40,389 bases of DNA from Lutispora sp. (GTDB lineage: Bacteria > Bacillota > Clostridia > Lutisporales > Lutisporaceae). Numbering within the stretch: the stretch's first letter is position 1; every line of letters starts with the position of its first letter. This document shows, piece after piece, positions 658-32,038 of this stretch. Where the stretch lies: contig JAQUTA010000009.1 in the NCBI GenBank assembly GCA_028709965.1, positions 1 through 40,389 on the forward strand, given 5' to 3'. A program made the position numbers and the translations under genes. Under the pieces are notes generated by a model. The model ran no database searches and had not been told where the DNA came from. It saw only the letters and a program-made list of their open reading frames with translations.

Positions 658-1296
658 ATGGCTATAAATATAAAATACGATGAAAAAGAAAAAACAAGAC
701 TATGTAAAATGTGGGAATATGAACATAGATGCTATGACAATGGTTTCAAAAACGTAGCAGGCGTAGATGAAGCTGGCCGGGGGCCATTGGCAGGGCCTGT
801 GGTAGCAGCTGCTGTTATTCTAAATAAAGATATGGTGATCCCCGGGATAAATGACTCAAAAAAACTTTCTGAGGCTAAGAGGGAATATCTTTATGATGAA
901 ATAAGAGCCAAAGCAATATCAATTGGAGTGGGCATAGTGGATGAAAAAGTAATTGATGAAATAAACATTTTGCAGGCTACTCTTCTTGCTATGAAAAGAG
1001 CAATAGAGACTCTATCAGTAACGCCTGATTATCTTCTGATTGATGCAGAAAAAATAAATAGCATAGCAATACCTCAATTCTCCATAATTAGAGGGGATAG
1101 CTTAAGCATTTCTATCGGAGCGGCTTCGATTATTGCCAAGGTAGAAAGAGATAGAATCCTTATTGATTATGATAAAAAGTATCCTGAATATGGATTTGGA
1201 AAGCATAAAGGATATGGTACAAAACAGCATATAGATTGTATAAGAAAATTTGGTCTGTTACCAATACATAGAAAGAGTTTTACCAAAAATTTTTAG
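658..1296 (+). CDS. rnhB: Ribonuclease HII
   Basis: RNase HII cleaves the RNA strand of RNA-DNA hybrids and starts removal of ribonucleotides misincorporated in DNA. The 212-residue protein has the diagnostic [20 protein letters not shown] block with catalytic Asp37 and Glu38, then NDSKKLS, DYLLIDA with the third acidic residue, [11 protein letters not shown], and the C-terminal [14 protein letters not shown] motif. These features separate it from RNase HIII, which carries an extra N-terminal domain. The ATG at 658 has only a weak ribosome site and lies 9 bases after the rbgA stop, so translational coupling is plausible. The length is slightly below that of Bacillus RNase HII. Confidence 0.95.
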
Positions 1297-1307
1297 TCGG
1301 TGATAAA

Positions 1308-2756
1308 ATGCGTATTATGTCTGTAAATAATAATTTAAAAGAATTTAACGGAGAACAATTGGTCAAATCTTTAAAAATTGGTGATGTTCTCAGGGGCAAT
1401 GTTGTCAATATAAGCGAAGGTAGGCTGAGCTTAAAAATTTCTGATGAACAAGTTTTAAATGCTGCAATTTTAACAGATGAGCATATTGAAAAGGGTTCAA
1501 TAATCGAAATTATTATTACTCATATGGATGATGATAAAATTTATGCTCAGATTCAAAAATCAAATTCGGGTGAAGAAGTATCTAAAGATGAAATACCAAA
1601 TATATTGAAAAAACTTGGAGTTGATGCGACGCAATTTAATAAAGATGTGTTTAAAACCCTCATCAAATATAGGCAGCCAATAAATAAGGAAATCATAGAT
1701 TATATAAACTTTTTAAGTAAAGCTGCGGAACCATTTAAGAAATGCAGCGTAGAAAAAATTCTAAATCTAATATTTGCTGAAAACGATATATTAAACACTC
1801 CTTTACATAAATTGCTTGAAATGCCTTCTTTAATTGATATGAATGAAATAATTAATGTTGAGTCATTAGAAGCTGAGCTCAAATCAGATGAAAATAGTAA
1901 AGGCATAAAAGAAAACTATGGATTGGATGAAAAAGCTTTGATAAAGTTTGAGCAGTTTTTCTCTGAAGCGGTAAAAGTAGGAGATGCCATAACAAAGGCG
2001 GATATAGAAGCTTTTGTATTTATGCTATCAAAAAATATTGAGATAACTCCGAAAAACTTATTTATTTTTGATAGCATAAATGAGAAGGTTGCAATTTTAT
2101 CCGGTTACATAGAGAATTTGTTGGTAAATCTTTTGGAATATGAGGATTCAGAAATTAAGTTAACTATTACCAAGCTTAAAGAAGCCTTCTTACAGCCTGA
2201 AGAATTCAACAGGGATAATATAAATACAAAAATTAAAGACCTTATTTCTCTTTTAGTTCGATTGGAATCTTATTTAGAGGCTAAAGGAGAAAATAGTTAT
2301 GAAATTAGGGATAACTTTATGAATTTGCGAAACACTCTTGATTTTATAAAATCTATAAATAACAATATGAATTATATACATATTCCAATAATCCTTAATA
2401 ATCAGCAAACTGATGTAGAGATTTTTGTATATGAGAGGGGTAAAAGAAATAAGAAGATTGATTTATCTAATGCTAGCATATTAATATGCTTGAATTTGAC
2501 CAATATTGGCTATATAGAAAGCCATATAGGTATAAATAATAAAAATGTCAATATTGTGTTTAAATCAAAGGATAGAATTATTGCAAATTTTATAAATTAT
2601 CATAGTAGGGAATTAAAAGAGGCTTTGAAACTAAAAGGATATAACATAAATATCAGCTCAAGTGAAAATAAGGAAGAAAAAATCAGCATTACTTCCATAG
2701 AAGAACTTTTAAACCCCCAAGATATTTCGAGATATAGTATTGATGTGAGGGTATAA
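1308..2756 (+). CDS. FliK C-terminal-like protein of the YlqG position
   Basis: This 482-residue protein of uncertain function lies between rnhB and the FlhB-like gene, the place of ylqG in Bacillus. The first 85 residues look like a small beta-barrel (KIGDVLRGNVVNISEGRLSL). A long, Lys/Glu-rich, mostly helical middle follows. The region from about residue 355 (HIPIILNNQQTDVEIFVYE, then ICLNLTNIGYIESHIG and ELKEALKLKGYNI) has the pattern of the Flg_hook domain at the C terminus of FliK hook-length proteins. There is no signal peptide or membrane segment. A GGTGAT site precedes ATG 1308; a second ATG at 1317 is also possible. The next gene starts 4 bases downstream, suggesting coupled synthesis with its FlhB-like partner. 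The FliK resemblance is read from pattern only and has not been tested by search. Confidence 0.6.
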   Translation: MRIMSVNNNLKEFNGEQLVKSLKIGDVLRGNVVNISEGRLSLKISDEQVLNAAILTDEHIEKGSIIEIIITHMDDDKIYAQIQKSNSGEEVSKDEIPNILKKLGVDATQFNKDVFKTLIKYRQPINKEIIDYINFLSKAAEPFKKCSVEKILNLIFAENDILNTPLHKLLEMPSLIDMNEIINVESLEAELKSDENSKGIKENYGLDEKALIKFEQFFSEAVKVGDAITKADIEAFVFMLSKNIEITPKNLFIFDSINEKVAILSGYIENLLVNLLEYEDSEIKLTITKLKEAFLQPEEFNRDNINTKIKDLISLLVRLESYLEAKGENSYEIRDNFMNLRNTLDFIKSINNNMNYIHIPIILNNQQTDVEIFVYERGKRNKKIDLSNASILICLNLTNIGYIESHIGINNKNVNIVFKSKDRIIANFINYHSRELKEALKLKGYNINISSSENKEEKISITSIEELLNPQDISRYSIDVRV

Positions 2757-2760
2757 AGAT

Positions 2761-3045
2761 ATGAAAGAAAGTAAAAATTGTATAAAGAAGGCCGCTGCTC
2801 TAACCTATGAAAAAGGATATACAGCTCCTAAAATAAGTGCTGCAGGGAAAGGAATAATTGCTGAGAATATAATAAAAGCAGCTAAAAAAAATAATGTACC
2901 CGTATTTGAAAACAAGGACTTAGTGGATAATTTGCTAAATTTTGAATTGGGAAGCGAAATACCACCCGAGTTATATGTTGTAGTAGCGGAAGTGCTTGCA
3001 TTTGTATCCCATATTGATAGAATGAAGGGAGAAAAAAATGTATAA
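2761..3045 (+). CDS. ylqH: Stand-alone FlhB C-terminal domain protein (YlqH/FlhX type)
   Basis: This 94-residue protein matches only the cytoplasmic C-terminal subdomain of the export-gate protein FlhB. Compared with the full FlhB at 30944-32038, about half of roughly 60 aligned residues are identical, including APxxxAxGK, VPxxENK, IPxExY and VAExLAFV. It has no transmembrane part. It lacks the NPTH/NPSH autocleavage motif, because the segment where that motif would end reads GYTAPKISA. In FlhB this subdomain binds export substrates and takes part in the switch controlled by FliK. A stand-alone copy could act as an accessory or decoy for that step, but this is inference. It overlaps the start of yraN by 8 bases. 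Confidence 0.85.
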   Translation: MKESKNCIKKAAALTYEKGYTAPKISAAGKGIIAENIIKAAKKNNVPVFENKDLVDNLLNFELGSEIPPELYVVVAEVLAFVSHIDRMKGEKNV

Positions 3046-3421
3046 TAAGAAGGTGTTAGGCAGCATTGGTGAGAAAGCAGCAATAGAATATCTTGAGGGT
3101 CGAGGTTATACAATAGTTGAGAAAAACTTTAGGTGCAAGCTGGGTGAAATAGATATCATTGCTGCAGATAATGATGTAATTGCATTTATTGAAGTTAAAA
3201 CTAGAAGCTCAGATATATTCGGCACGCCTGGAGAAGCAGTTAATTTTTATAAACAGAGAAAGATTGTTCAAACAGCTTTAGCATTTATTAAACAAAAAAA
3301 ACTATACGATTGGATGAGCCGTTTTGATGTAGTAGAAGTTATCGCAGATGATTATGATAATATAATCGATATAAACTTAATTAAGAATGCTTTTGAGTAT
3401 AGTGGAAAATATGGCTATTGA
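3038..3421 (+). CDS. yraN: YraN / UPF0102 family nuclease-like protein
   Basis: The 127-residue protein has the UPF0102 pattern: GSIGEKAAIEYLEGRGY near the N terminus, NFRCKLGEIDIIAAD, then FIEVKTRSSDIFGTPGEAV. The Glu/Asp of GEIDII and the ExK of FIEVKTR form a restriction-endonuclease-like (PD-(D/E)xK-type) active-site arrangement. The family is widespread and its substrate is not well defined; a role in DNA processing is often assumed. The ATG at 3038 has the site AAGGGAGA 8 bases upstream, inside the end of the previous gene. It is the last gene of the leftward housekeeping cluster and converges on comM. Confidence 0.93.
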   Translation: MYNKKVLGSIGEKAAIEYLEGRGYTIVEKNFRCKLGEIDIIAADNDVIAFIEVKTRSSDIFGTPGEAVNFYKQRKIVQTALAFIKQKKLYDWMSRFDVVEVIADDYDNIIDINLIKNAFEYSGKYGY

Positions 3422-12878: not shown

Positions 12879-12962
12879 ATGTCAATATATATATGAATAA
12901 AAAGGAAATACATGATTTGTGTCGAAGTAATTATTTTAAAGAAATTAAGGGAGAAGATTTTT

Positions 12963-19265: not shown

Positions 19266-19895
19266 ATGCAGCAAGTTGAGACAAAACAAAATACAAAAAA
19301 AACTAAAGGAAAAATAAAGCTGCAGAATTTATTCCTAATATTAGCAATAATCCTATTAACAGCAGTAATCGTTATTGGCGGTATACTTTTTTTCAATATT
19401 GGAGGTGCCAAACCGGTTTTATTAAAACAACTTTCAAATTTGCCTTTATTAGGGAGCATTATTAAGCCAATATCTGAGAATAAAACTCCGCAACAAATTG
19501 AACTAGAACTATTAGATTCTCAGAGAAAAGATATTGATATTAGAATGAAGCAACTAGAAGAAAAGCAAAAAGAACTTGAAACTAAAGAAAAAGCTGTATC
19601 AAATAAAGAGGAATTGCTAAATACAAAAGAGGCTGAGATAGATGAAAAGCTTGATAAGCTAAACAGCAGCTTAAGTAGTATTATGGAACAAGTAGAGTAT
19701 CTAGAAAAGATGGAATCATCAAAAGCTATGCAGATTTTATCTAATATGGAAAGCAAAAATACAGTGGTTCAAATACTTAGAAACATGAAAAAGGAAAAAA
19801 GCAGTTCTATATTGATGCTTATGGATCCACTGCAGGCAGCTCAGATACTTGAAGATATAGCCCAACCAGAGAATGTACATAAGACGAATAATTAA
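19266..19895 (+). CDS. motE: MotE-like MgtE-N domain motility chaperone
   Basis: The 209-residue protein has a Lys-rich N terminus, one transmembrane helix at about residues 24-45 (LFLILAIILLTAVIVIGGIL), a long coiled coil (DIDIRMKQLEEKQKELETKE and onward) and a C-terminal MgtE intracellular N-type domain (MQILSNMESKNTVVQILRNM and KSSSILMLMDPLQAAQILED). This layout matches MotE/YlxF proteins, which help MotB fold or insert in Firmicutes. It occupies the ylxF position between fliJ and fliK. A GGGGGTAGAGGT site precedes ATG 19266. The chaperone role comes from the family and is not visible here. Confidence 0.85.
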   Translation: MQQVETKQNTKKTKGKIKLQNLFLILAIILLTAVIVIGGILFFNIGGAKPVLLKQLSNLPLLGSIIKPISENKTPQQIELELLDSQRKDIDIRMKQLEEKQKELETKEKAVSNKEELLNTKEAEIDEKLDKLNSSLSSIMEQVEYLEKMESSKAMQILSNMESKNTVVQILRNMKKEKSSSILMLMDPLQAAQILEDIAQPENVHKTNN

Positions 19896-19923
19896 TAGGA
19901 TGATATGAAAGGAGGTGATAATA

Positions 19924-21336
19924 ATGGAATCATTAGAATTGATAAACTTAAGCCGTGGGAATTCTGTAGGCGCTAAGATTGGTTTAAAGCCTAAACCTGA
20001 TTTGAATAGTTTTGCCTATTCCAATATTATGGAGAAAGCCCTAGTGTATAGAGAAAACCGTGAAACAGCAAGAAATATAGATAAGAAGAAAAATGTACTT
20101 GACTTTAATTCTCTAAGCAGAACATTAGCAGGAAATCAGCAAATATGCAGCAACAAAGATAATGATAATAAAGCTTGCAAAGATTCTGCCCCATTAGAGG
20201 ATATAGCAGATGAAGATATTACAAAAGAAGAAAAAAACCTAATAGACTCTATCATGACCATGCTTTCAGGGTTATTAAACCTTAGCAGACAAGAGATAGA
20301 TGGAATCAGAGATATACTTAGTAATCAAATAGAGCCCAATATGGAAAATGAATCAATTAAGACTTCCATAATGAATGAAATTTATACAATTGTTCAAATC
20401 GATGAGCTGCCAAATATAAAAGACTTTGAGAATGCAATTAATCTGCTTGCAACTTTGAAACAAAACCTTACCATAGCAAAGAATAGCACTGACGAATTGG
20501 ATTTAGATGATAACGATTTCAAAGAAGCTAGTGGATTAAATGAAGACAAAAATACTCATAAACCAGACTTAATTGACGGTCATATACCGGATCCTAGGGG
20601 TGAGGAAAAGGGGAAAATAGAAATTAAAAGACCTGCGCTAATAAATACTGTAATAAATAATGAAGTCGCAAACAATGAAACAGAGAATTTTGAGCAATCT
20701 GATTCAGACAATAATATTGAAAATAAATATAGTATGGAGAATCAGATTAAAAAAGTAGATTCAGCTGAAAAACGCAGTGCAATAGACAAGGCAATTGAAC
20801 CTATACGTACTGAGTATATTACAACTGATGGAAAAAACTTTACTGTTAATAACGACTCAAAGCCTATTGAGAAGAGCTTGGAATATTTAGATAAAACTCA
20901 AAGCATAAACAAAGAAGAATTGTTTAGCCAGATTATTGAAAACAGTAAAGTTATTGAAAATCATGACTTTTCAGAAATAAGAATTCAATTAAAGCCAGAT
21001 TCTTTAGGGAAGCTAACCATACGTCTTATAATGGAAAAAGGAGAAATGACGGCAAAATTTATCGCAGAGAATCATAGAGTGAAAGAAGCAATTGAATCAA
21101 ATTTTTCTGAACTAAAGGATTCTCTAAGTCAAAAGGGGATTAATATTCAAAGTTTAAGCGTATCTGTAGGGCAGCAAGGAAAGTGGCAATATGAGAATAA
21201 AAATCTTAGAGCTTGGAAGAACAATATTAAAAGATCCAGCTATATTGGAGATGCTGATTTGGAATTAGAAGGAGAGACTTCGGCTTACAGAAACCCATAT
21301 AGTCTGAATCAAGGATCTGTGGATATAAAAGTATAG
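19924..21336 (+). CDS. fliK: Flagellar hook-length control protein FliK
   Basis: FliK measures hook length and triggers the FlhB substrate switch. The 470-residue protein has a long, polar, low-complexity ruler region (Asn, Asp, Glu and Lys rich) over residues 1-330, and a C-terminal Flg_hook domain with FSEIRIQLKPDSLGKLTIRL, EKGEMTAKFIAENHRVKEAI and LKDSLSQKGINIQSLSVSVG. The near-perfect site AAAGGAGGTGAT lies just before ATG 19924; the frame can be extended to GTG 19915, but that codon lies within the site. The hook protein FlgE that it controls is three genes downstream. Confidence 0.92.
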   Translation: MESLELINLSRGNSVGAKIGLKPKPDLNSFAYSNIMEKALVYRENRETARNIDKKKNVLDFNSLSRTLAGNQQICSNKDNDNKACKDSAPLEDIADEDITKEEKNLIDSIMTMLSGLLNLSRQEIDGIRDILSNQIEPNMENESIKTSIMNEIYTIVQIDELPNIKDFENAINLLATLKQNLTIAKNSTDELDLDDNDFKEASGLNEDKNTHKPDLIDGHIPDPRGEEKGKIEIKRPALINTVINNEVANNETENFEQSDSDNNIENKYSMENQIKKVDSAEKRSAIDKAIEPIRTEYITTDGKNFTVNNDSKPIEKSLEYLDKTQSINKEELFSQIIENSKVIENHDFSEIRIQLKPDSLGKLTIRLIMEKGEMTAKFIAENHRVKEAIESNFSELKDSLSQKGINIQSLSVSVGQQGKWQYENKNLRAWKNNIKRSSYIGDADLELEGETSAYRNPYSLNQGSVDIKV

Positions 21337-30161: not shown

Positions 30162-30947
30162 ATGTATGAATTAACTGATGTATTTATCAATCAATTTATT
30201 GTATTTCTTCTTGTATTTGTGAGGATGACGTCGTTATTTATAATAAGCCCAGTATTTGGAAGGCAAAACATGCCTTCTTATTTAAAAATAGGATTAGCTG
30301 TGTTTTCCACTTTTATTATTGCACCCTTACTAGTAAATGTTTCTATTAGTTACACGAATTTTATAGATTTCAGTATTATTATTTTTAAAGAATTGCTTGT
30401 AGGAATTATAATTGGGTATGTTAGTTTTGTGTTATTTTCAGCTATGTTTGTGGCAGGTCAAATAATCGACGCGCAGATTGGTTTTGGAATGGTCAATGTG
30501 CTTGATCCGCAAAGCAATATTCAAGTCCCCCTCATAGGAAACTTTTTGTACATATTTGCGATTTTAGTTTTTTTGCTTGTGGATGGCCATCATGTTTTGT
30601 TTTCTGCTCTTGTTAAAAGTTATAATATTGTGCCTATAAACAGCTTCTTTTTTACAAAAAATCTTATTAACAATATTATAGGAATATTTGCTGAAACATT
30701 TATGATAGCATTAAAAATTGGGTTTCCAATTATTGGGGCAGTGTTAATATCAGAGGCTGCTTTAGGTATATTATCTAGAACTATTCCGCAAATGAATGTT
30801 TTTATTGTAGGCATGCCAATGAAAATTGGATTGGGTCTTTTGACATTATTATTGATACTACCAGGTTTTTCTAATACTTTAGATTATTTGTTTGATATTT
30901 TATACGCTTATATAAGCATTGCTATTCAGAGCATGACCAAAGGATGA
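30162..30947 (+). CDS. fliR: Flagellar export gate protein FliR
   Basis: FliR completes the FliPQR pore. The 261-residue, strongly hydrophobic protein contains FVRMTSLFIISPVFGRQNMP near the start, then GFGMVNVLDPQSN and ALGILSRTIPQMNVFIVGMP, the standard FliR landmarks. The start at ATG 30162 is 4 bases after the fliQ stop and has almost no ribosome site, so it is probably translated by coupling. It overlaps flhB in an ATGA arrangement. Confidence 0.96.
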   Translation: MYELTDVFINQFIVFLLVFVRMTSLFIISPVFGRQNMPSYLKIGLAVFSTFIIAPLLVNVSISYTNFIDFSIIIFKELLVGIIIGYVSFVLFSAMFVAGQIIDAQIGFGMVNVLDPQSNIQVPLIGNFLYIFAILVFLLVDGHHVLFSALVKSYNIVPINSFFFTKNLINNIIGIFAETFMIALKIGFPIIGAVLISEAALGILSRTIPQMNVFIVGMPMKIGLGLLTLLLILPGFSNTLDYLFDILYAYISIAIQSMTKG

Positions 30948-32038
30948 TTGTTTTGTATGATTTCAATATAAATCTTTCTCTTTTTTCAGAAGAAAAGACT
31001 GAGAGGGCGACTCCTAAAAGAAGAAGAGAAGCAAGAGAAAAAGGACAAGTAGCTAAAAGTAGAGAAATAATATCTGCAGTATTGTTATTGCTAATATTTT
31101 GGTGTCTTAAGGTACTATCAGGATTTATTTATGACAGCTTGACTTTTATTATTACTAAATTTTTAACTATATTTAGTAATGCAGAAGAATTATATAAAGC
31201 TCCTAATATATATGGAATCTTCATACAAAGCATTTGGATTTTTATGACAATTATGTTTCCTATTTTGGGAGTAGCTTTATTAGCTTCTATTTTAGCGAAT
31301 TATTTGCAAGTTGGATTTATCTTCTCTCTTAAACCTTTAACACCAAATTTTAATAAATTAAACCCTATAGAAGGGATTAAAAGACTTTTTTCCAAAAACT
31401 CATTGGTTGAGTTGGTAAAGGCATTCTTAAAAATGTTTTTAATTGGATATTTTATTTATGATTTTTTAAAAGATAATTACCTTGTGATATCTGAATTAAT
31501 CTATATGGAACTTAATTCTTCTGTCAGCTTTATAGGCAACTCCATAATTACCATAGGAATTAGGTCGTCAATTGTTCTATTTATTTTAGCAGTATTCGAC
31601 TATGGTTATCAACTATGGGAATTTGAAAAGAATATTAAAATGTCTAAGCAGGAGATTAAAGAAGAGTATAAGCAAGTGGAAGGCAATCCTCAAATTAAAT
31701 CAAAAATAAGAGAAAAACAGAGACAATTGTCTTTGCGAAGAATGATGGCAGAGGTTCCTAAGGCAGATGTGATAATTACTAATCCAAGCCATTATGCAAT
31801 AGCAATTAAATATGATCTGAATATTTCAGAAGCCCCTATGGTTATAGCCAAAGGAAAGGATTTAATTGCTAACAGGATTAAAGATTGTGCTAAGCAATCA
31901 AGTGTACCGATAATTGAAAATAAGCCTTTAGCTCAAGCTTTATATAAAACTACAGAAATAGGACAACAGATACCTGTTGAGATGTATCAGGCTGTAGCGG
32001 AATTATTAGCTTTTGTTTATAGCTTAAAAAATAAGTAG
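30944..32038 (+). CDS. flhB: Flagellar export switch protein FlhB
   Basis: FlhB controls the change from hook to filament export. The 364-residue protein has [20 protein letters not shown] near the start, four transmembrane helices to about residue 215, a linker, and a cytoplasmic domain with NPSH at residues 280-283 ([16 protein letters not shown]), the autocleavage site between Asn and Pro; most family members have NPTH. ATG 30944 overlaps the fliR stop; TTG 30953, 9 bases after AAAGG, could be the real start. Confidence 0.95.

What the first reader, a model, noticed from the sequence alone, without database searches (positions are those of the whole stretch)
1308..3045. FliK-like and FlhB-C-like genes side by side, far from the flagellar operon
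FliK and the cytoplasmic domain of FlhB are known partners in the flagellar export switch. Here a protein with a FliK-type C-terminal domain and a stand-alone FlhB C-terminal domain without the NPTH motif are encoded 4 bases apart in a housekeeping cluster. The pair is conserved in position with Bacillus ylqG-ylqH. They may form a complex that tunes hook length or export, or may have taken another role near ribosome assembly and RNase H genes.
Basis: partly seen in the sequence, partly recalled or inferred. Interest (0 to 1): 0.5.

Follow-up and report, generated by a model that had tools for sequence, protein, structure and literature searches.

The report
Spare FliK–FlhB switch gene pair
Two neighbouring genes encode a second copy of the two parts that tell a growing bacterial flagellum to stop making its hook and start its filament; the pair was seen in flagellated bacteria of several phyla, and its exact job is untested.

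Summary
Window 1308-2756 encodes a FliK-type protein (YlqG-like) and 2761-3045 a free-standing FlhB C-terminal domain (FlhX/YlqH-like) without TM part or NPTH, 4 bases apart. "Far from the flagellar operon" is wrong: it starts 9.9 kb downstream, same strand, and holds canonical fliK and flhB.

The pair is conserved: 65 of 76 ORFs upstream of FlhX (window included) match Pfam Flg_hook, some from other phyla. It tracks flagella: of 348 phylum-mates, 59 lack FlhA and only 2 of these have an FlhB/FlhX hit, one a contig break, one not inspected. FliK and FlhB-C copy numbers rise together. Six relatives carry a second such pair, beside flagellin in four.

In Firmicutes the partner ends in a pentapeptide shared with canonical FliK; in Salmonella FliK's last five residues are proposed to eject FlhB-CC. 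Its N-terminus is an OB/S1-like domain absent from 24 of 24 canonical FliKs. The four proteobacterial partners examined lack the strict tail and any significant OB match.

Most likely: an accessory export-switch module, FlhX an exchangeable FlhB-CC and YlqG its dedicated FliK. Function is inferred; an AlphaFold2 fusion showed no docking of the tail.

The parts
1308..2756 (+). YlqG-like FliK-type protein, 482 aa, upstream partner of FlhX
   Evidence: Flg_hook E=0.0018 (below cut-off) and DUF6240 E=2.5e-7; 65 of 76 members of the upstream-ORF set, window included, match Flg_hook; AF2 model
1365..1568 (+). N-terminal OB/S1-like beta barrel (residues about 20-87)
   Evidence: AF2 strands 27-82; VIA Z about 6 to S1, eIF5A and NusA chains; its profile is found in 0 of 24 canonical FliK
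1584..2360 (+). helical middle region (residues 93-351)
   Evidence: AF2 secondary structure; DUF6240 matches residues 95-176
2373..2666 (+). FliK-C / T3S4-type switch domain (residues 356-453)
   Evidence: the same domain in a homologue
2739..2753 (+). C-terminal pentapeptide IDVRV
   Evidence: strict tail motif in 50 of 76 database upstream ORFs, 0 of 238 control ORFs; canonical FliK of the window ends VDIKV, E. coli FliK VDIFA
2761..3045 (+). FlhX (YlqH-like), free-standing FlhB C-terminal (CC) domain, 94 aa, no TM, no NPTH
   Evidence: Bac_export_2 E=3.2e-17 over profile 260-335 only; TIGR00789 E=6.6e-27; a homologue's model fits FlhB-CC 3b1s_D Z 9.8, rmsd 1.2, 60 aligned
658..1296 (+). 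rnhB (RNase HII), upstream neighbour
   Evidence: PF01351 E=1.1e-40
3038..3421 (+). yraN (UPF0102), downstream neighbour, overlaps flhX by 8 bp
   Evidence: PF02021 E=9e-29
19915..21336 (+). canonical FliK in the fla operon (paralogue of the YlqG-like protein)
   Evidence: Flg_hook E=9.5e-21
30944..32038 (+). canonical FlhB (full length, NPSH at the cleavage site; paralogue of FlhX)
   Evidence: TIGR00328 E=5.5e-124; translation

Best explanation
ylqG-flhX is an accessory flagellar type III export-switch module: a free-standing FlhB-CC domain (FlhX) with its own FliK-type protein. Shown here: domain identities, tight gene pairing, near-restriction to genomes with flagellar genes, linked FliK/FlhB-C copy numbers, the shared C-terminal pentapeptide in the Firmicutes form, and a second such pair beside flagellin in relatives. 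Inferred: FlhX sits in, or exchanges with, the place of FlhB-CC at the export gate, and YlqG's switch domain plus C-terminal pentapeptide engages FlhX (or FlhB-CC) as FliK engages FlhB-CC, adjusting when or whether the apparatus leaves hook mode. Which direction it pushes (ejecting, restoring or titrating CC) is not known.
For: Flg_hook upstream of FlhX in 65 of 76 ORFs, also in several other phyla, and in 27 of 28 genomes of the relatives set, window's included. Of 348 genomes, FlhB/FlhX in 290 and FlhA in 289; FlhB/FlhX without FlhA only in G083 and G379, G083 being a contig break inside a fla operon. Copy numbers: of 82 genomes with one FlhB/FlhX match, 74 have one Flg_hook; of 201 with two, 132 have two. 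With a YlqG profile, a match reaching beyond the FliK-C part in 0 of 25 single-copy flagellates. Second pair beside flagellin in 4 of 6 relatives that have one. Strict tail motif in 50 of 76 against 0 of 238 controls. Salmonella: the last five FliK residues are proposed to act on FlhB-CCD and eject it (PMC13344023: abstract, section 14 and passages). FlhX fold = FlhB-CC. An 'flhX-fliK' locus outside the main cluster is mentioned for Nitratiruptor (PMC9321776, passages).
Against: AF2 fusion shows no docking of the tail (pLDDT<50, no strand). 82 of 290 genomes with FlhB/FlhX have a single match, so most of these flagellates seem to do without the pair. 65 of 201 two-copy genomes show only one Flg_hook at E<=0.01; a YlqG profile found a match beyond FliK-C in 15 of 25 of those tested and not in 10. 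The four proteobacterial partners (L154, L165, L167, L171) and the Nitrospirae one (L151) lack the strict tail, and L154, L165, L171 gave no OB match (L167 only E=0.011), so tail and OB domain are not general. Some FlhX genes have no FliK-type ORF directly upstream (L134, L140, L144, L155, L157 and others). Fold matches of the switch domain are modest (Z 5.0 and 4.0). No mutant, expression or interaction data were found.
Confidence: 0.6

Rival explanations
1. Decoy or buffer: FlhX does not enter the gate but binds the switch domain/tail of canonical FliK (or of YlqG) in the cytosol, setting the threshold for switching and so hook length.
For: Same domains and related tails; FlhX lacks TM and NPTH; not every flagellate has it.
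Against: Does not by itself explain why FlhX keeps a partner with a distinct N-terminus that was not found where FlhX is absent.
Confidence: 0.2
2. Role outside flagella: the OB/S1-like N-terminus binds RNA and the pair serves the ribosome-assembly/RNase H neighbourhood.
For: Operon position beside rbgA-rnhB; OB/S1-like fold, Z about 6.
Against: Nearly restricted to genomes with flagellar genes; the second pair lies beside flagellin and gave no OB match; OB folds are not specific to RNA, and Z 6 is middling.
Confidence: 0.07
3. Inert leftover of a gene duplication, kept by linkage in a conserved operon.
For: Absent from many flagellates; YlqG evolves fast (mean column identity 20% in A5).
Against: No YlqG-type N-terminus in 25 of 25 single-copy flagellates tested, conserved tail in otherwise divergent Firmicutes proteins, pairing in several phyla and second copies in another setting.
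Confidence: 0.08

Closest known systems
Helicobacter pylori HP1575 (FlhX), 'spare part' for FlhB-CC (Wand et al. 2006; only the title seen, in the reference list of PMC3040844; paper not held)
   Same: free-standing FlhB C-terminal domain
   Different: a dedicated FliK-type partner beside it is not something I could check there; complementation not tested here
FliK - FlhB-CC switch of Salmonella (PMC13344023)
   Same: FliK-type switch domain with a C-terminal pentapeptide, and an FlhB-CC domain
   Different: here the CC is a separate gene without TM or NPTH, and the FliK-like protein has an OB-like N-terminus and lies outside the fla operon
TIGR00789 flhB_rel, 'FlhB-like flagellar biosynthesis protein' (NCBIfam)
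   Same: nearly full-length profile match (2-81 of 84), E=6.6e-27
   Different: 93.5 bits is under the curated cut-off of 117.35
flhX-fliK locus of Nitratiruptor (PMC9321776, passages)
   Same: flhX named together with fliK outside the main flagellar cluster
   Different: Campylobacterota; only named in the passages I read, no function given there

Membership tests
FliK (hook-length control) | Flg_hook / T3S4-type C-terminal domain | tested here: met
   window protein alone E=0.0018, below the Pfam cut-off; met at family level: 65 of 76, 2rrl top hit E=5.9e-5; fold match to 5cuk is modest
FliK (hook-length control) | C-terminal pentapeptide of the canonical type | tested here: met
   IDVRV here; canonical FliK ends VDIKV in the window and VDIFA in E. 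coli; of 25 canonical tails 21 fit the loose and 14 the strict motif
FliK (hook-length control) | encoded in the fla operon as the only FliK | tested here: not met
   the canonical FliK is a separate gene at 19915-21336
FliK (hook-length control) | is exported and sets hook length | not testable with these tools
   needs export assays and hook measurement
FlhB | N-terminal TM domain | tested here: not met
   94 aa; matches profile positions 260-335 only
FlhB | autocleaved NPTH motif | tested here: not met
   no NP[TS]H in the window protein (sequence) nor in 80 of 80 FlhX frames
FlhB | CC-domain fold | tested here: met
   homologue model against 3b1s_D Z 9.8, rmsd 1.2, 60 aligned; sequence profile E=1.1e-20 to 3b1s_B
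TIGR00789 flhB_rel | score over the curated cut-off | tested here: not met
   93.5 bits against 117.35
FlhX 'spare part' (HP1575) | rescues export when FlhB-CC is deleted | not testable with these tools
   needs genetics

The most novel reading that the evidence does not exclude
The pair makes the export switch resettable. Canonical FliK ejects FlhB-CC once, a step described as irreversible in Salmonella; here FlhX reloads an emptied gate (back to hook mode, or onto replacement flagella) and YlqG, an OB-domain FliK, is the dedicated ejector of FlhX, so these bacteria would run a two-key, reversible hook/filament switch.
Probability: 0.15. Interest if true: 0.8.

Novelty: new variant of a known kind. 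Interest (0 to 1): 0.52.

Why it matters
How FliK flips FlhB is a long-standing question, and a 2026 Salmonella study proposes that the last FliK residues eject FlhB-CC. This pair is a natural separation of those two parts into two genes, present in Bacilli and Clostridia. It gives soluble partners to test FliK tail-CC binding, and suggests that many flagellated bacteria carry a second layer of switch control that Salmonella-based models do not include.

Tried and rejected
Donor-strand idea (YlqG's tail I-D-V-R-V replaces the strand before NPTH that FlhX lacks, compare A-D-V-I-I-T in the window's FlhB): tested with an AF2 fusion of a homologous pair, L126; residues 133-158, tail and linker, have pLDDT<50 and no strand, so it is not supported. 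The tool returned no PAE or coordinates and most alignment rows were unpaired, so it is not excluded either. PDB matches of that model to FlhB-CC start at residue 171 or later, after the tail.

Mirror tree on 39 loci: partial rank correlation YlqG-FlhX 0.525, the highest of six pairs, but YlqG-RnhB is 0.431, so this is weak evidence.

An FlhX-type match in a genome without FlhA (G083) looked like a counter-example; its contig L175 holds fliG to fliY and is 16 kb long. G379 was not inspected, nor is it known whether its match is FlhX or FlhB. No natural FliK-FlhX fusion was noticed in the sampled loci, but this was not searched for; L164 is a 277-aa frame with only Bac_export_2 found.

Literature searches for ylqG/ylqH, FlhX, FliK paralogues and FlhB-like proteins listed no study of YlqG as partner of FlhX, going by titles and starts of abstracts. 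PMC11523185 lists ylqG P457Q among several mutations of evolved clones (passage): no inference drawn. 'FlhB2' in PMC3708937 is part of chimera names. PMC7771051 and PMC7911332 hold none of the terms I looked for (FlhX, spare). PMC4894983, PMC4758666 and PMC9235176 were seen in listings only.

Rows dropped: three of 28 canonical FliK loci (L049, L055, L057) gave a wrong frame and were left out of the 25 tails; G043, with a 196-aa FlhX frame, was not among the 28 relatives' loci; one FlhX row (L128) of the 117 prepared was left out. The genomes of the relatives search and the 80 database loci overlap: at least six contigs look the same by length (L094, L095, L096, L097, L099, L109), so the two sets are not independent.

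Full report
What is there. The window runs rbgA - rnhB - ylqG-like - flhX - yraN - comM(-) - dprA - topA - trmFO - hslV - hslU - codY - flgB ... and on into a large fla operon (ORFs; Pfam for rbgA, rnhB, yraN, codY, the rod proteins, fliF and fliK; NCBIfam for fliJ, flgD, flgE, flhB; FlhA; the names comM, dprA, topA, trmFO, hslV, hslU and flgB rest on gene order and reading the sequence). The claimed genes are at 1308-2756 (482 aa) and 2761-3045 (94 aa), separated by 4 bases. The first flagellar gene begins at 12912, 9.9 kb downstream on the same strand, and the operon holds canonical FliK (19915-21336, Flg_hook E=9.5e-21) and full-length FlhB (30944-32038; TIGR00328 E=5.5e-124). So the pair is upstream of the flagellar operon, not remote from it.

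Identity of the small protein. It matches only the last part of the FlhB profile (positions 260-335 of 335, E=3.2e-17) and the FlhB-like model TIGR00789 (E=6.6e-27, below its curated cut-off). It has no room for the TM domain and no NPTH; none of 80 database FlhX frames has NP[TS]H. A profile of 20 relatives finds FlhB-C crystal structures first (3b1s_B E=1.1e-20). In an AF2 model of a homologue the domain fits FlhB/EscU/SpaS CC chains (3b1s_D Z 9.8, rmsd 1.2, 60 aligned).

Identity of the large protein. Alone it scores below the Pfam cut-off for Flg_hook (18.5 against 29.8 bits), but the family carries it: 65 of 76 ORFs upstream of FlhX match at E<=0.01 (75 database loci plus the window; of the 80 loci, 4 had no upstream ORF of 60 aa or more and L168's was left out). 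Its profile finds FliK-C 2rrl first (E=5.9e-5). The AF2 model of the window protein (mean pLDDT 80) shows an N-terminal beta barrel (27-82), a helical middle (93-351) and a C-terminal alpha/beta domain (356-453). Foldseek puts the PscP switch domain 5cuk sixth for it, behind S1/eIF2alpha-type matches (E=0.032, rmsd 2.0); for the homologous domain in the fusion model 5cuk is the best match outside the FlhB family (E=0.0033; Z 5.0, rmsd 3.5, 78 aligned), with FliK-C 2rrl at Z 4.0, rmsd 3.8, 76 aligned; such Z values alone prove little. The N-terminal barrel resembles S1/OB domains (Z about 6; Pfam TOBE in 6 and S1 in 1 of 76 members). A profile of it hits 47 of 76 database upstream ORFs at E<1e-3, including ones not used for training from Nitrospirae (L151) and Methylomirabilis (L137), and none of 24 canonical FliKs nor E. 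coli FliK; most of the 47 were in the training set, and L154, L165 and L171 (Proteobacteria) gave no match, L167 only E=0.011.

The tail. The 28 FlhX loci of the relatives set (window's included) all have an upstream ORF, and in 27 the fourth residue from its end is D. In the database set the strict motif [FILV]D[VIMLFY][RKT][AVI] at the very end occurs in 50 of 76 upstream ORFs and in 0 of 238 rbgA/rnhB/yraN/other housekeeping/FlhX ORFs; among 2635 complete ORFs only one hit lay outside the upstream set, an adenylosuccinate lyase. The 26 without it include upstream ORFs that are not FliK-type, near misses, and the four proteobacterial partners L154, L165, L167, L171 and the Nitrospirae one L151. 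Canonical FliKs share the looser form (21 of 25 tails; the strict form 14 of 25), the window's FliK ending VDIKV and E. coli's VDIFA. In Salmonella the last five FliK residues are proposed to act on FlhB-CCD and eject it (PMC13344023: abstract, section 14 and passages). In Firmicutes the partner of FlhX therefore keeps the part of FliK that is thought to act on FlhB-CC.

Pairing and phyletic spread. Of 61 genomes (60 relatives and the window's), 28 gave a short, free-standing FlhX locus, and in 27 of these Flg_hook lies directly upstream at E<=0.01; in the 28th (G060) the YlqG profile matches there. A database scan returned the best 80 of 306 confirmed places, all with a free-standing FlhX frame (77-277 aa), including Domibacillus, Heyndrickxia, Shewanella, Marichromatium (beside motAB), a Pseudomonadaceae MAG, Nitrobacter, Nitrospirae and Methylomirabilis by record title. 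The upstream ORF matches Flg_hook at E<=0.013 in 9 of the 10 proteins checked one by one, the tenth (L155) being a seryl-tRNA synthetase. Exceptions exist: rnhB directly upstream (L134, L157), a class I tRNA synthetase (L140, L144) and others.

Flagellar link. In 348 genomes of the phylum (drawn at 90% completeness or more, the window's own at 88% included), FlhB/FlhX occurs in 290, FlhA in 289 and Flg_hook in 289. FlhB/FlhX without FlhA: G083 and G379, both with Flg_hook; FlhA without FlhB/FlhX: G277. G083 has fla genes on a 16-kb contig; G379 was not inspected. Of the 82 genomes with one FlhB/FlhX match, 74 have one Flg_hook, 6 none, 2 two; of 201 with two, 132 have two, 65 one, 2 none, 2 three; of 7 with three or more, 4 have two and 3 three (from hand-copied counts; two or more against one: odds ratio 84). 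Seven genomes have Flg_hook but no FlhB/FlhX. I then tested 25 of the 82 single-copy genomes and 25 of the 65 two-copy, one-Flg_hook genomes with the YlqG profile: a match reaching beyond the FliK-C part was found in 0 of 25 and 15 of 25; 10 of the latter stayed without one.

A second pair. G001, G002, G003, G005, G008 and G041 carry a second FliK-like + FlhX pair, in five of six overlapping by 4 bases. Flagellin lies beside it in 4 of 6 (L031 by Pfam; L032, L033, L035 by reading the N-terminus), fliS by Pfam in L031, DUF327 by Pfam in L031, L034 and L035; L036 is only 1.5 kb. These partners gave no OB match. This places the module in a flagellar context independent of the rnhB operon.

Mechanism. 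Shown: the parts, their linkage, the flagellar restriction and the conserved tail in Firmicutes. Inferred: FlhX can stand in for FlhB-CC (the title of a 2006 H. pylori paper calls HP1575 a 'spare part'; paper not held), and YlqG acts on it as FliK acts on FlhB-CC. A read-through fusion model gave two confident domains and a disordered tail; it neither shows nor excludes an interface. Known so far: FlhX is listed as an export component in PMC10746217 and appears as flhX-fliK in PMC9321776 (passages). What I did not find in the searches named under Tried and rejected is a description of the dedicated partner with its OB-like N-terminus and shared tail.

Noticed in passing
window 30944-32038: The window's canonical FlhB has NPSH instead of NPTH at the autocleavage site.
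   Followed up: no
L031, L032, L033, L034, L035, L036: Second FliK-like/FlhX pair, beside flagellin in four and a DUF327 gene in three of the six stretches.
   Followed up: partly
L035:4631-7522: 964-aa FliK-like protein with four DUF6240 stretches: DUF6240 may be a repeat of ruler-type proteins.
   Followed up: no
L140, L144, L134, L157: FlhX genes without a FliK-type gene directly upstream (class I tRNA synthetase or rnhB instead).
   Followed up: no
L154, L165, L167, L171: Proteobacterial FliK-type partners of FlhX lack the strict tail motif and a significant OB match: a different form of the pair.
   Followed up: partly
G102:C38:6262-7126, G139:C17: A 335-348 aa frame with a YlqG-type N-terminus seems to lie downstream of FlhX, reversed order.
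   Followed up: no
window 19266-19895: Gene between fliJ and fliK with a weak match to the flagellar collar protein FlbB, E=3.4e-10, below cut-off.
   Followed up: no
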